From positions 1-64,000 of the forward strand of contig DAIDHW010000008.1 in NCBI GenBank assembly GCA_027451865.1: DNA of 64,000 bases. The letters run 5' to 3'. The stretch is from Leptolyngbyaceae cyanobacterium clean351 (GTDB taxonomy: Bacteria > Cyanobacteriota > Cyanobacteriia > DAIDHW01). Shown here piece after piece: positions 21,624 to 31,638 of this stretch (position 1 is the stretch's first letter; each line of letters starts with the position of its first letter). Below the pieces are notes generated by a model that saw only the letters and a program-made list of their open reading frames with translations, was not told the origin of the DNA and searched no databases. The position numbers were made by a program, and so were the translations under genes.

Positions 21624-22817
21624 TTAGGTGCCCTTGCGCAGGTCCTTCGCCTTCCTTTGCAACTGTTGAAAGTAGTCCGTCTCCGTGATTTCCGCCACTT
21701 GCCGGGCGCGCTTGGACTGGTCTATTTCGATGCGCAGGGACTGGATCTGCTGCTTGAGGCGTTGCTCACGCAAGTAAACCTCCTGGGCCATGCGCTGGAA
21801 CACCCGGGCCAAATTACCCAGGGCATCCCGGCGGGCGGCCACTCCTGCTAAGCTGACCGGGTCGAAGGTGGCTGTCTCCACCGCCGCCGCGGCCGCCGTC
21901 AGGGAGGCCACTTGGCGCAGGTATTCTACTTCTTGGTCCCGCAGGCGTTTTTTTTCGAGGCAGGCGTTGATCCGTGCCTGCAGGAGCACGGGGTTAAAGG
22001 GTTTTTGCAGGTAGTCCTCAGCGCCGATCTCAATGCAGTAGACTACACTATCTAGTTCGTCTAGGGCGGAGATCATAATTACCGGGATATCCCGCCAGCG
22101 TTGGTCCGCCTTGAGGGTCTGCAGCACCTGCAACCCATTCATCTGGGGCATGATCACATCCAACAGAAGCAGGTCTACGACCGCCGTGGCCAAATGCTCT
22201 AGGGCCTCTTGACCATCAGCGGCGGTGGTGACTTCGTAGCCTTGGCGGCTGAGGCGCTGCAGGAGCAGGTCGCGGTTAACGGGGTTATCATCCACCACCA
22301 GAATCTTCCCCTGGTTGACCGTGGGCAGTGAAGAAGTAGGGGAGTGGAGGGAGGTGGCCACCGACTGGATCAGGGCGACAGTTGGGTCTTGCTCAACCGT
22401 TACCCCGGCAAGTCCTCCCTCCTGGGCTAGGTTAATCACATCTTGGATCAGCTCTAGCATCCTTAGGGCAGCACTATGGATTTTCACCAGGTCCGGAGCC
22501 TGGTCAGGGTCAGCCTCCTCCAGGAGCAATTCCGTGTAGCCAATCACAGCCGTTAAGGGAGTGCGCAGGTGGTGGTGGACCTGGTCGGCCAAACTCTGCA
22601 GGTCCAGGGATTCACCTTTGCCATTAGCCGGGGCGAGCAATTGGTTAACCTGGGTCAGGAGTTGCCTACCTCCGAGGAGCACCTTCTCCAAGTCTGGGTC
22701 AGGAGGCTGCTGCTCCTCCAGGAGCATTTCACTGTAGCCGATGATGGCATTGATGGGAGTGCGCAACTCATGGCGCAGATTAGTCAAGTAGGCCCGCTCT
22801 ACCCACTGGTCAGTCAT
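21624..22817 (-). CDS. Signalling protein: two DHp-like helices, receiver domain, coiled coil
   Basis: A 397-residue protein with an unusual build. Residues about 10-60 contain LRHELRTPINAIIGYSEMLLEE and about 75-130 contain HHHLRTPLTAVIGYTELLLEE. Both look like HisKA phospho-acceptor (DHp) helices with a histidine. No HATPase domain (N, G1 or G2 box) follows. A complete receiver domain comes next (about 170-290: VVDDNPVNRD, LLLLDVIMPQMNG, ISALDE, DYLQKPFNP). A helical end follows (ARVFQRMAQEVYLREQRLKQQ, TETDYFQQLQRKAKDLR) that I recall from other cyanobacterial signalling proteins. It shares ATGA with the upstream receiver gene. It may be a phosphotransfer scaffold. Confidence 0.85.
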   Translation of the reverse strand: MTDQWVERAYLTNLRHELRTPINAIIGYSEMLLEEQQPPDPDLEKVLLGGRQLLTQVNQLLAPANGKGESLDLQSLADQVHHHLRTPLTAVIGYTELLLEEADPDQAPDLVKIHSAALRMLELIQDVINLAQEGGLAGVTVEQDPTVALIQSVATSLHSPTSSLPTVNQGKILVVDDNPVNRDLLLQRLSRQGYEVTTAADGQEALEHLATAVVDLLLLDVIMPQMNGLQVLQTLKADQRWRDIPVIMISALDELDSVVYCIEIGAEDYLQKPFNPVLLQARINACLEKKRLRDQEVEYLRQVASLTAAAAAVETATFDPVSLAGVAARRDALGNLARVFQRMAQEVYLREQRLKQQIQSLRIEIDQSKRARQVAEITETDYFQQLQRKAKDLRKGT

Positions 22818-26631: not shown

Positions 26632-26766
26632 ATGATGTCTGACTTGTGGGGTCTGATGAAAAAAAACAATCTACCGTGCTTTAAGTTTAAGTGGGCTGCC
26701 TCCCACACAGCGCCATGGGGGCTGCCGTCCGTGGCGCTGGAACGGGATACTGCCGGGGGCGAGTAG
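26632..26766 (+). CDS. Possible 44-codon leader ORF abutting the SIR2 gene
   Basis: An ATG at 26632 (and another at 26635) opens a 44-residue frame with AGAGGA six bases upstream. It contains LWGLMKKNNLPCFKFKW and ends SVALERDTAGGE, then TAG at 26764-26766. The GTG start of the SIR2 gene follows at once in the same frame, so only the amber codon separates the two. It may be a small leader protein giving translational coupling. It could also be the relic of an N-terminal extension or of another defence gene. I recognise no family. Confidence 0.35.
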   Translation: MMSDLWGLMKKNNLPCFKFKWAASHTAPWGLPSVALERDTAGGE

Positions 26767-29700
26767 GTGCAATTCGTCCCCGACGGCCCCGACATCCCAA
26801 ATGAACTTCTGCAGGCGCACGAGGAAGGGCGCGTTGTGTTTTTCTGTGGTGCAGGCATTTCCTACCCCGCAGGGCTGCCGGGCTTTGAGGGGCTAGTAGA
26901 GGGTATCTACACGTTGACTTATGCAGTGCGATTGGGTGTCGAGCAGAGAGCCTTCTGTTCCAAGGAGTACGACAAATGCCTACATCTGCTTGAGCAGCGC
27001 TTGCCTGGGGGGAGTTCGGCCGTCCGTCTCGCCTTGGAAAAGATTCTGACCCCTAAACCCGAGAGTGCCACTGATACCCAGGCTGCCCTGTTGCGACTAG
27101 GGCGCAGCCGTGAAGGCAAGCTGCAGCTGGTTACCACCAACTTCGACCGCCTCTTTCACTGGGCTGCCAAACGTACAGGGCAAGATTTCAAAAGCTACAC
27201 CGCTCCAGAGCTGCCGATTCCGAAAAACAGCCGCTGGGACGGACTGGTTTACCTACATGGCCTACTCCCTGCCGATGGGGGAGACGAGAGGGCATTGGAC
27301 CAACTGGTGGTTACTAGCGGTGACTTCGGTTTGGCCTATCTGAGTGAAGGCTGGGCAGCCCGCTTTGTGAGGGAGCTATTCCGTAACTACGTGGTCTGCT
27401 TTGTGGGCTACAGCATCAGCGACCCAATGCTGCGCTACATGATGGATGCCCTGGCGGCTGACCGGATGCGGGGTGAGGACGCGCCGCGGGCCTGGGCCCT
27501 AGGCAGTTTTGAGTCAGGGCAAGAGTCCCAGGAAGCCACTAGAGAGTCCCAGGAAGCCACTAGTTGGAAAGCTAAGGGCGTTGAACCTATTCTCTACAGG
27601 TCACACACTGCACACGATCACTCGTTGCTGCACCAGACCCTGGACAAATGGGCAGACACCTACCGTGATGACATGCAAGGTAAGGAAGCCATTGTTACTA
27701 AGTACGCCTGCTCCGAACTACGGGGGAGCACAAAGCAAGACAATTTCGTGGGCCGGATGCTGTGGGCGCTGTCGGACAAATCAGGCGTACCCGCCAAACA
27801 CTTTGCAGGCCTCAACCCAGCCCCGCCCCTAGACTGGCTGTATTGTTTCTCTGGGCAGAACGAAGTCATATCCCAGCCCCATCTGGCAGACTGGCTGGCA
27901 CGCCATTTGGATGACCCAAAGCTACTCATCTGGATGGCAAAAGAAAGTGGACAACTAGGCGACGGTTGGCCGTCGGTGATCAGACAGCAACTAAATTACC
28001 TTGCTTCACTAGAGCGGGATGGCAAGAATGATGAGCTAGATGGAATCCGCCTGAATTCCCCTAGAGCCATTCCCGGCCCCTCGATGCGAACCTTGTGGCG
28101 TCTTCTGCTCAGCGGTCGGGTGAAATCACCCCAGCAGAACACCGACCAGTATCCCTTACATGACTGGGAAAGGTGTCTTGAGCTAGAAGGACTGACCACC
28201 CCTCTTCGCCTGGAGTTGCGCGGACTGCTCGCGCCTCGGGTGACCTTAAAGCCACCGTTTCCTTGGGGCAACGATATGAGCACTGATCAGCTAGATAGCA
28301 TCAGTCAGTTGGTGAACTGGGAGATCGTCCTAGCAGCCGATGATGTGCGTTATACACTGGGCAACCTGGCCAATAACGAACACTGGAAATCAGGTCTGCC
28401 GCACCTACTGGGGGATTTTCAGCAGCTATTGCGTGATGCTCTGGACCTATCACGGGAACTGGGGGGAGCTAACGACCATCACGACCAGTCATTACTGCAT
28501 TTGCCATCTATTGAGCCGCACTGGCAAAACCGCGACTTCCGTGACTGGGTGATTCTGATCGAAGTGCTGCGCGATGCGTGGCTGGAGGTTCGCATCACCG
28601 AAAGTGCCCGCGCCGCGCACATCACCCGGGATTGGTTTGAGTTGCCCTACCCCACCTTCAAACGCCTCGCCCTATTTGCCGCTAGTCGGGATGATGGTTG
28701 CATTCCGTCCGAGCAGTGGGTTGAGTGGCTGCTGGCCGACAGCGGGCGGTGGCTGTGGTCTGAACATACACAACGGGAGGTGTGTAGGCTGTTCGCGCAG
28801 CAAGGGCAACGGTTGACAAGGACAGCACAGGAGCGCTTGGAGGCTGCCATCTTAGCTGGACCGCCCCACCGGGATGATCTAGAGCCTGATAGGTGGCTAG
28901 GTTTAGTGGATCGCCCTATCTGGCTGCGTTTAGACAAGCTGAAGCAGTCTGGCCTCATTCTGGGAGAGTTTGCATCAGCACGCCCGGCAGAAATTTCCCA
29001 AGCCAACGAGAGCGACGAGTTTCCGTACTGGATGGAGGACAACCTAGAGGTCGATATAGCCCCACGCAAGCGGCAGGATCTAGTGCAATGGCTCAAGAGG
29101 CCGCCTGAGAGAGGACCGTTCTCTGAAGACACATGGGGTGATGTCTGCCGAAAACACATGTTAAATAGCCTATGTGCACTGAGGGATTTAGCAGATGATG
29201 GTGTATGGCCTCTCCAGCGATGGACCGAAGCGCTGAGAGTCTGGGGCAGAGAGGGGAAAGGCAGAAGAGTTAAGCGGTCATGGCGTTATGCTGCGCCGCT
29301 GGTGCTACAGATGCTTAAGAATATTCCTGGGGAAATGGCAATGGCACACACCGTCACGTGGTGGATGCAGGCCACATCCAAGGCAATTACCCTCAACGCC
29401 GAAGATGAGAGCATTCTGCTGCAACTGTGCGATTGCGTGCTGGATTTGCCGCTGGAAGCTGCTACTGGCAGTAGCGACTCTGTTTTTGGAGCTATCAATC
29501 ATCCCGTCGAGCACATCACAGAGGTGCTGGTCAAGCTCTGTCTCAGACGTGATCCAAACGACGGCGATCAAATCCCAGACAACATTAAGCCCTTCTTCAC
29601 CAGGATCTGTGATGTGCAGGTGGACTGGTTTCGCCCCGGCCGGGTGGACTGGTTTCGCCCCGGCCGGGTGGTGTTGGGTTTATACCTGATCACACTTTTC

Positions 29701-30441
29701 CGCCTAGACCGGCTGTGGACTGATGAGCACCTTCTGCCGTTATTTAGTTGGGATAATCCAACCGAAGCCAAGGCAATGTGGCAACACTTCCTCCGTTCAC
29801 CGCGCGTGCACCTGCCCTTGTTTACAGCTCCAGCCTTCAAGCCGCAGTTTCTCGAGAGTGCAAGGCACTACGATGACCTTGGTGAACACCGCCAGGTTTT
29901 TGCTAGCTTCCTAACGAGCGCCGCCTTAGAACCAATCGAAGGATACACGACCGATGATTTCCGGTCTGTAATTGCTGCACTGCCACTAGAGGGCCTAGAA
30001 CAGTCCGCGCGAGAATTATCTAAGGCCATCGAAGGTGCCGCTAGCCAACGTGAGGAGTACTGGAAGAATCGCGTACAACCTTTCTGGCAAAACGTCTGGC
30101 CCAAGGACCGCAAACTGGTCACCCCTCGTATAATCCAGTCCTTGATCCTGATGGCCCTTGCCGCCCGGGGTGAGTTTCCGGCCGCCTTGGCTGAGGTGAA
30201 ATACTGGCTGCAACCCATTGGATACCTGCACTACATTCTTGATCGTCTGAGCGGGTCTGGTCTGTGCAGTAAATCCCCAGAGGCAGCATTGCAACTGCTA
30301 TATGAAGTGATTAACGCTCAATCGTCGTGGTCCCCGGATTTGGGTCAATGCTTAGACAAGATCGCGCAGGCCGATCCAAACCTTGCCCAAGATCCCCGTT
30401 ATCTCAGACTCCGAGAGCATTGCCGTCAGCATGGAATGTAG
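26767..30441 (+). CDS. Large SIR2-domain protein, probable Dsr1-type phage defence
   Basis: The 1224 residues begin with a SIR2-like NAD-binding domain (about 20-290): FFCGAGISYPAG (GAGIS at 28-32), TTNFDRLF (123-130), YLHG (His164) and VCFVGYSISDPML. About 900 helical residues follow, which I compare from memory with the DUF4020 region of defence-associated sirtuin 1 (Dsr1). Such proteins sense phage infection and deplete NAD+ to stop phage growth. The start is GTG 26767, directly after a TAG. Two perfect in-frame tandem duplications occur (27522-27563 and 29619-29666). No second defence gene is adjacent; chrA starts 15 bases downstream. The Dsr1 assignment is inference; the SIR2 domain is clear. 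Confidence 0.88.
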   Translation: MQFVPDGPDIPNELLQAHEEGRVVFFCGAGISYPAGLPGFEGLVEGIYTLTYAVRLGVEQRAFCSKEYDKCLHLLEQRLPGGSSAVRLALEKILTPKPESATDTQAALLRLGRSREGKLQLVTTNFDRLFHWAAKRTGQDFKSYTAPELPIPKNSRWDGLVYLHGLLPADGGDERALDQLVVTSGDFGLAYLSEGWAARFVRELFRNYVVCFVGYSISDPMLRYMMDALAADRMRGEDAPRAWALGSFESGQESQEATRESQEATSWKAKGVEPILYRSHTAHDHSLLHQTLDKWADTYRDDMQGKEAIVTKYACSELRGSTKQDNFVGRMLWALSDKSGVPAKHFAGLNPAPPLDWLYCFSGQNEVISQPHLADWLARHLDDPKLLIWMAKESGQLGDGWPSVIRQQLNYLASLERDGKNDELDGIRLNSPRAIPGPSMRTLWRLLLSGRVKSPQQNTDQYPLHDWERCLELEGLTTPLRLELRGLLAPRVTLKPPFPWGNDMSTDQLDSISQLVNWEIVLAADDVRYTLGNLANNEHWKSGLPHLLGDFQQLLRDALDLSRELGGANDHHDQSLLHLPSIEPHWQNRDFRDWVILIEVLRDAWLEVRITESARAAHITRDWFELPYPTFKRLALFAASRDDGCIPSEQWVEWLLADSGRWLWSEHTQREVCRLFAQQGQRLTRTAQERLEAAILAGPPHRDDLEPDRWLGLVDRPIWLRLDKLKQSGLILGEFASARPAEISQANESDEFPYWMEDNLEVDIAPRKRQDLVQWLKRPPERGPFSEDTWGDVCRKHMLNSLCALRDLADDGVWPLQRWTEALRVWGREGKGRRVKRSWRYAAPLVLQMLKNIPGEMAMAHTVTWWMQATSKAITLNAEDESILLQLCDCVLDLPLEAATGSSDSVFGAINHPVEHITEVLVKLCLRRDPNDGDQIPDNIKPFFTRICDVQVDWFRPGRVDWFRPGRVVLGLYLITLFRLDRLWTDEHLLPLFSWDNPTEAKAMWQHFLRSPRVHLPLFTAPAFKPQFLESARHYDDLGEHRQVFASFLTSAALEPIEGYTTDDFRSVIAALPLEGLEQSARELSKAIEGAASQREEYWKNRVQPFWQNVWPKDRKLVTPRIIQSLILMALAARGEFPAALAEVKYWLQPIGYLHYILDRLSGSGLCSKSPEAALQLLYEVINAQSSWSPDLGQCLDKIAQADPNLAQDPRYLRLREHCRQHGM
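27522..27563 (+). repeat. Perfect 21-base tandem duplication in the SIR2 gene
   Basis: Two identical 21-base copies (27522-27542 and 27543-27563) encode ESQEATR/ESQEATS in a charged linker after the SIR2 domain (about residues 253-266). The length is a multiple of three, so the frame is kept. Perfect identity suggests a recent duplication. Confidence 0.9.
29619..29666 (+). repeat. Perfect 24-base tandem duplication in the SIR2 gene
   Basis: Copies 29619-29642 and 29643-29666 are identical and encode VDWFRPGR twice in a row (about residues 952-966), followed by a few matching bases of a third copy. The frame is kept. This lies inside the C-terminal helical region, so the protein has eight extra residues compared with an unduplicated form. 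Confidence 0.92.
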
Positions 30442-30456: not shown

Positions 30457-31638
30457 ATGGGACCAGAGGCCGGTAAACCAACCTACGATGCTCTGTCCGC
30501 CGAGCAAAAACGCCACAGACTCCTAGAAGTGGCGGGGTCATTTTTGCGCCTAGGTACCATCGCTTTCGGGGGGCCGGCGGCCCACATCGCCATGATGGAC
30601 CAAGAGTTTGTCGGGCGGCGCCAGTGGGTCAGCCGCGAAAAGCTCCTAGACCTGTTGGGCATTACCAACCTCATCCCCGGTCCCAACTCCACAGAGTTGG
30701 TGATGCATCTAGGCTGCGAGCAAGCCGGGTGGCGGGGCCTGATCCTGGCAGGGACCTGTTTTGTCTTGCCAGCCATGGGGATGGTATGGGCCTTGGCTAT
30801 CCTGTACAGCCACTATCAGACGCTTCCCCAGCTCCAAGCCCTGCTCTACGGGATCAAACCGGTGATCATTGCCATCACCCTCCAGGCCCTCGGGAATTTA
30901 GGTCGCAAGGCCGTTAAGGATATTCCTACGGCCCTGGCAGTCTTGGGGGCCGGGGCAGGTTATTTCAGTGGTTTCAGTCCCATCCTCCTGGTGGTGGGCT
31001 TGGGGGCGGGGGTGATGGTGGTTAAGAACTGGCAGCGCCTCAGTTCCCCCCTGGGACTAATTCCTATACCCGGGTCCTGGGTCCTGGCCGTCAGTAGTTC
31101 ACCCCCTAGCTCTGTGGGCTGGCTGAGTGTGTTGACGTTCTTTCTCAAGATTGGCTGCGTGCTCTACGGCAGTGGCTACGTCCTGTTGGCCTTTCTCCAG
31201 CAGGACTTAGTGGAGCGCCACCATTGGCTGACGTCCCAGCAGCTTTTGGACGCAGTGGCAATCGGCCAATTCACCCCAGGGCCAGTATTCACCACGGCTA
31301 CCTTTATTGGTTACCTCCTGGCGGGTAACCCCGGCGCTATCGCCGCCACGGTGGGCATTTTTTTGCCGGCCTTTTTCTTCGTGTGGCTAGTGCGCCCTGC
31401 AGCCGCCTGGCTACGTCAATCCCGGTGGGCAAGCAGCCTCCTAGACGGGGTGAATGCTGCCTCCCTAGGGTTGATGGCCAGTGTTACCTGGGTACTGGCC
31501 TGGTCCGCCCTAGTTGACAAACTAACCCTTACTCTGGGGGTGGTGAGTCTAGGGGTACTGCTGCGCTGGCGGCCCAATTCAGTTTGGCTAGTGCTAGCCG
31601 GTGGCGGGGCTGGGGTCCTCGCCTGGATCAACAAATGA
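30457..31638 (+). CDS. chrA: Chromate transporter ChrA
   Basis: A 393-residue CHR-family membrane protein made of two homologous halves, expected to export chromate. The first half has GTIAFGGPAAHIAMMDQEFV, WVSREKLLDLLGITNLIPGPNSTEL and YGIKPVIIAITLQALG. The second has GCVLYGSGYVLLAFLQQDLV and LLDAVAIGQFTPGPVFTTATFIGYL. The paired (G)FGGP/YGSGY and PGPN/PGPV motifs are family hallmarks. The ATG starts 15 bases after the SIR2 gene stop, so it may be read from the same transcript. Whether it arrived with the SIR2 gene or was there before cannot be told. Confidence 0.94.
   Translation: MGPEAGKPTYDALSAEQKRHRLLEVAGSFLRLGTIAFGGPAAHIAMMDQEFVGRRQWVSREKLLDLLGITNLIPGPNSTELVMHLGCEQAGWRGLILAGTCFVLPAMGMVWALAILYSHYQTLPQLQALLYGIKPVIIAITLQALGNLGRKAVKDIPTALAVLGAGAGYFSGFSPILLVVGLGAGVMVVKNWQRLSSPLGLIPIPGSWVLAVSSSPPSSVGWLSVLTFFLKIGCVLYGSGYVLLAFLQQDLVERHHWLTSQQLLDAVAIGQFTPGPVFTTATFIGYLLAGNPGAIAATVGIFLPAFFFVWLVRPAAAWLRQSRWASSLLDGVNAASLGLMASVTWVLAWSALVDKLTLTLGVVSLGVLLRWRPNSVWLVLAGGGAGVLAWINK

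What the first reader, a model, noticed from the sequence alone, without database searches (positions are those of the whole stretch)
26632..30441. Probable Dsr1-type sirtuin defence gene as a lone cassette between guaA and chrA
The 1224-residue protein has an intact SIR2 active-site set (GAGIS, TTNFD, His164) and a long helical region. Such proteins protect bacteria from phage by destroying NAD+. It has no obvious partner and sits in one transcriptional unit with a chromate transporter. A cyanobacterial member is of interest because its phage trigger would be unknown.
Basis: partly seen in the sequence, partly recalled or inferred. Interest (0 to 1): 0.6.

Follow-up and report, generated by a model that had tools for sequence, protein, structure and literature searches.

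The report
Lone Dsr1 antiphage sirtuin in cyanobacterium
A cyanobacterium carries a single-gene, apparently intact copy of Dsr1, a known bacterial anti-phage protein that probably destroys NAD+ when it senses a phage; its closest known relatives are on proteobacterial plasmids and prophages, so it was probably acquired by horizontal transfer, and the find is a rare host for a known system rather than a new system.

Summary
The gene is 26767-30441 (+), 1224 aa, GTG start. The protein passes NCBI's Dsr1 equivalog model (1609 bits, cut-off 1400) and PADLOC's Dsr1 models over nearly its whole length. The sirtuin motifs GAGIS (28-32), TTNFD (123-127) and His164 are present, and N125, D127 and H164 are invariant in aligned relatives. 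A model of moderate quality matches DSR2 structures first: a SIR2 domain plus a helical solenoid. The host is a cyanobacterium. No other full-length Dsr1 was found in 386 genomes of the phylum or 390 of the class. Relatives (40-57% identical) are proteobacterial, many on plasmids and prophage-like contigs; the tree nests this copy among them. It has an unusual excess of in-frame indels (23 events, 111 aa), mostly in predicted loops, and no stop or frameshift, so it is probably functional. Flanking genes are cyanobacterial and no partner was found. The phage trigger is unknown. A new member of a known kind; modest interest.

The parts
26767..30441 (+). dsr1, anti-phage defence-associated sirtuin, 1224 aa, GTG start
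   Evidence: NCBIfam NF041818 1609 bits vs cut-off 1400; PADLOC Dsr1 1680 bits; start aligns with relatives
26767..27666 (+). SIR2 domain (about residues 1-300): GAGIS at 26848, TTNFD at 27133, His164 at 27256
   Evidence: Pfam SIR2_2 2.7e-21; motifs; VIA-align Z about 12 to ThsA, DSR2, KomC SIR2 domains
27667..30438 (+). middle and C-terminal helical solenoid, presumed phage sensor (residues 301-1224)
   Evidence: Dsr1 model match 372-1219; helical repeat model, DSR2 top in Foldseek over the whole chain
27850..27888 (+). site of the largest in-frame loss, about 49-50 aa in two blocks against relatives (about residues 362-374)
   Evidence: alignment; falls mainly in a low-confidence loop of an intact relative
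27522..27563 (+). perfect tandem duplication, 21 bp x2, in frame
   Evidence: 7-aa insertion relative to family
29619..29666 (+). perfect tandem duplication, 24 bp x2, in frame (VDWFRPGR twice)
   Evidence: 8-aa insertion relative to family
30457..31638 (+). chrA-type chromate transporter, 15 nt downstream; cyanobacterial, possibly co-transcribed, not part of the defence system
   Evidence: Pfam Chromate_transp 1.9e-82; up to 67% identity in same-class genomes; absent from all Dsr1 loci of other bacteria held

Best explanation
A horizontally acquired, single-gene Dsr1 defence. The N-terminal SIR2 domain is an NADase held inactive until the C-terminal helical solenoid binds a phage component. 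The SIR2 domain then hydrolyses NAD+ (N125 and H164 catalytic) and stops phage multiplication. Shown here: family membership, intact catalytic motifs, DSR2-like domain order in a model, absence of a partner, foreign phylogenetic position, reading frame kept through many indels. Inferred from relatives: NADase activity, solenoid as sensor, SIR2 oligomerisation. Unknown: the phage trigger, and whether the cell dies.
For: NCBIfam equivalog above cut-off; PADLOC Dsr1; motifs and invariance; Foldseek top 12 PDB hits all DSR2 across the chain, E 6e-7 to 3e-4; SIR2 domain Z about 12 to ThsA, DSR2 and KomC NADases. In DSR2 the tail tube protein binds the C-terminal domain and activates the NADase, and N133/H171 are needed (PMC10981675, PMC10973363, PMC11087589). 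Reported for DSR1: it inhibits phage replication (PMC10952713). Frame kept across 23 indel events; substitutions at conserved sites no higher than in other divergent Dsr1 (17 of 282 vs 18 of 272 and 28 of 280). Homologues on plasmids and prophage-like contigs.
Against: No expression, NADase or phage data. The copy has lost about 80 aa and gained about 31 relative to relatives, far more than any of 14 others, so altered or lost function cannot be excluded. The model is only moderate (pLDDT 65, pTM 0.39) and global TM-scores to DSR2 are low (0.15-0.2). A DSR2-like trigger is analogy: C-terminal sequences of DSR1 and DSR2 share limited homology (PMC10973363). A helical solenoid is a common arrangement (importins score similarly).
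Confidence: 0.85

Rival explanations
1. A decaying or already inactive Dsr1: acquired, then drifting under weak selection, with the catalytic domain still readable.
For: 23 indel events and 111 aa of length change against at most 12 events and 22 aa in relatives; 13 conserved columns lost to gaps, 0-2 elsewhere; two perfect, so recent, tandem duplications. Decayed dsr1 copies exist elsewhere (L006, L030, L034).
Against: All length changes keep the frame, with no stop over 1224 codons. Conserved-site substitutions are not raised. Indels lie in lower-confidence positions (59 vs 65 mean, P about 0.04; deleted stretches in an intact relative 54 vs 73). The catalytic residues are kept.
Confidence: 0.12
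2. A SIR2 NADase stress or signalling gene of the host, linked to chrA and not to phage.
For: Only 15 nt separate it from chrA, with no terminator-like site in the gap; host-like codon usage.
Against: chrA homologues are common in the class without dsr1; no chrA in the other Dsr1 loci held; the family is on plasmids and prophage-like contigs.
Confidence: 0.03

Closest known systems
Dsr1 (NCBIfam NF041818; PADLOC PDLC02183, PDLC04167), e.g. on Shewanella xiamenensis plasmid pHD6416-NDM
   Same: 57% identical end to end; same start, SIR2 motifs and single-gene layout
   Different: Cyanobacterial setting between guaA and chrA; about 50 aa missing after the SIR2 part and 16 aa missing near residues 746-756; two short tandem duplications
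DSR2 (Bacillus subtilis; PDB 8z18, 8wks and others)
   Same: SIR2 NADase domain plus helical solenoid in one chain; top structural match; conserved catalytic Asn and His
   Different: Little sequence similarity (no DSR2 chain in phmmer); the known trigger, tail tube protein, is DSR2's and was not tested for this protein
ThsA (Thoeris) and KomC SIR2 NADases
   Same: SIR2 domain fold and motifs
   Different: Different second domain or partner; those belong to multi-gene systems

Membership tests
Dsr1 (NF041818) | Whole-protein score above the curated equivalog cut-off | tested here: met
   1609 vs 1400 bits; 1606 by six-frame search
Dsr1 (NF041818) | N-terminal SIR2 domain with GAGxS, TTNxD and catalytic His | tested here: met
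   motif definition as in PMC12931631
Dsr1 (NF041818) | Long Dsr1-specific C-terminal region | tested here: met
   Residues 372-1219 match model 414-1262; about 57 model positions between the two matched stretches (357 to 414) are lost
Dsr1 (NF041818) | Single-gene system | tested here: met
   No defence partner among flanking genes tested; annotated relatives have different neighbours from one another
Dsr1 (NF041818) | Phage protection through NAD+ depletion | not testable with these tools
   needs experiment
DUF4020 (PF13212) proteins | Match to PF13212 | tested here: not met
   No match in the window protein or four Dsr1 relatives nor in the own genome (which had no positive control)
DSR2 | Sequence match to DSR2 | tested here: not met
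   phmmer against PDB, which holds DSR2, lists no DSR2 chain at E up to 1; structural resemblance only

The most novel reading that the evidence does not exclude
A Dsr1 whose middle and sensor regions were reshaped after transfer to a cyanobacterium (loss of a loop of about 50 aa and many loop indels), so that it recognises a component of a cyanophage, a trigger different from that of proteobacterial Dsr1.
Probability: 0.2. Interest if true: 0.5.

Novelty: new member of a known kind. Interest (0 to 1): 0.3.

Why it matters
It extends a defence known mainly from proteobacteria to a cyanobacterium, where it appears to be very rare, and gives a natural variant that keeps the Dsr1 core while losing loops. 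Comparing it with proteobacterial Dsr1 could show which parts of the solenoid set phage specificity; the open-access papers found here name no DSR1 trigger, and no DSR1 structure turned up in the PDB searches.

Tried and rejected
DUF4020 as a hallmark: rejected. Start at 26632: rejected, in-frame TAG. Assembly chimera or contaminant contig: unlikely, codon usage sits within its neighbours and both flanking genes match the class (guaA up to 82%, chrA up to 67%). Borders by empty site: not possible, no genome of the same genus or family was among the relatives drawn, and guaA and chrA lie far apart in the relatives where both sit on one contig. Mobile-element borders: the 335 bp upstream occurs once in the genome, no long flanking repeats, no tRNA at the site, one integrase on another contig. 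Phage records: no Dsr1 by tblastn; single-sequence IMG/VR scan empty, the profile scan found 16 loci. Sigma-70 promoter scan: none found. The primary DSR1 paper (Garb et al. 2022) is not held, so DSR1 facts come from later papers. A literature search for Dsr1 in cyanobacteria returned no paper.

Full report
What is there. The + strand ORF 26767-30441 encodes 1224 aa from a GTG. The GTG aligns exactly with the annotated starts of other Dsr1 genes, so the short upstream ORF is not part of the protein.

Identity. The protein exceeds the curated cut-off of NCBI's Dsr1 equivalog model (1609 vs 1400 bits) and matches PADLOC Dsr1 models over residues 1-363 and 372-1223. Pfam sees only SIR2_2 at 121-275. 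GAGIS, TTNFD and His164 are present and N125, D127 and H164 are invariant in the family alignment.

Architecture and mechanism. An AlphaFold model from 13 sequences is only moderate (pLDDT 65). Even so, its twelve best Foldseek matches in the PDB are all DSR2 structures, aligned over about 1,200 columns; global TM-scores are low (about 0.15-0.2), so the domain order is supported more than the exact arrangement. The SIR2 domain aligns with DSR2, ThsA and KomC at Z about 11-13. The rest is a helical solenoid, which by itself is a common arrangement. In DSR2 the solenoid binds the phage tail tube protein and releases SIR2 NADase activity that depends on Asn133 and His171 (PMC10981675, PMC10973363, PMC11087589). 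I infer the same order of events here with N125 and H164. A review reports that DSR1 inhibits phage replication without cell death (PMC10952713). The trigger of this copy is unknown.

Origin. The host is a cyanobacterium: two photosystem II core antenna genes and flanking genes with close homologues throughout the class. No other full-length Dsr1 was found in the 58 nearest other genomes, 386 genomes of the phylum or 390 of the class; these are samples that share members and do not prove it unique. The best relatives are proteobacterial: Shewanella, Pantoea and E. coli records at about 57%, and IMG/VR contigs at up to 57%, two of which carry phage-type genes beside dsr1. In a tree the window copy sits inside this set, though the nearest forks are weakly supported. 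Horizontal acquisition is the simplest reading. Codon usage is now host-like, so transfer was either old or from a donor of similar composition.

Is it intact? This copy is the outlier of the family in length changes: 13 deletion and 10 insertion events, 111 aa, against at most 12 events and 22 aa in 14 others. The largest loss, about 50 aa after residue 361, and a loss of about 16 aa near 746-756 remove mainly low-confidence loops of an intact relative (mean pLDDT about 54 in deleted stretches, 73 elsewhere). Event boundaries depend on the alignment, and the enrichment in low-confidence positions of its own model is modest (P about 0.04). Two perfect tandem duplications of 21 and 24 bp look recent. 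All changes keep the frame and no stop occurs. Substitutions at otherwise invariant positions are no more frequent than in Methylococcus or Thauera Dsr1. I take it as probably functional, with a real chance of altered specificity or decay.

Setting. guaA lies 335 bp upstream and chrA 15 nt downstream; no defence gene was found among the neighbouring genes tested. There is no long repeat, tRNA or recombinase at the borders. Co-transcription with chrA is plausible but untested.

Verdict. A rare cyanobacterial member of a known single-gene defence family.

Noticed in passing
L006:1295-2268 (Accumulibacter sp. SCELSE-10): A dsr1 with an internal deletion joining query residues 168 and 1061; probably a remnant.
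   Followed up: no
L030 and L034 (IMG/VR): dsr1 copies in which one frame read through gives 46 and 62 stops, so frameshifted: decayed dsr1 copies occur on prophage-like contigs.
   Followed up: no
L008, L009, L010 (same phylum, family f45, about 2 Mb genomes): Shorter SIR2-like proteins (open frames 309-346 aa) matching only the SIR2 part of Dsr1, in several genomes of one family.
   Followed up: no
L003, L015, L016, L019 upstream of dsr1: A conserved stretch just before the start (TCGAATGAACATGCACATTGGATAGGAAGAAAAGGA and variants), possibly a shared leader or regulatory element; not seen before the window gene.
   Followed up: no
window:22454-22529: ARAGORN calls a tRNA-Arg (CCG) on the - strand inside the histidine kinase ORF 21624-22817 on the same strand; either a false call or an overlap.
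   Followed up: no
window:26632-26766: 44-codon ORF ending directly at the dsr1 start codon, single copy in the genome; possible leader peptide or chance.
   Followed up: partly
window:34894-36609: Glycosyltransferase and methyltransferase genes with the most deviant codon usage of the window genes compared, and lower GC.
   Followed up: no
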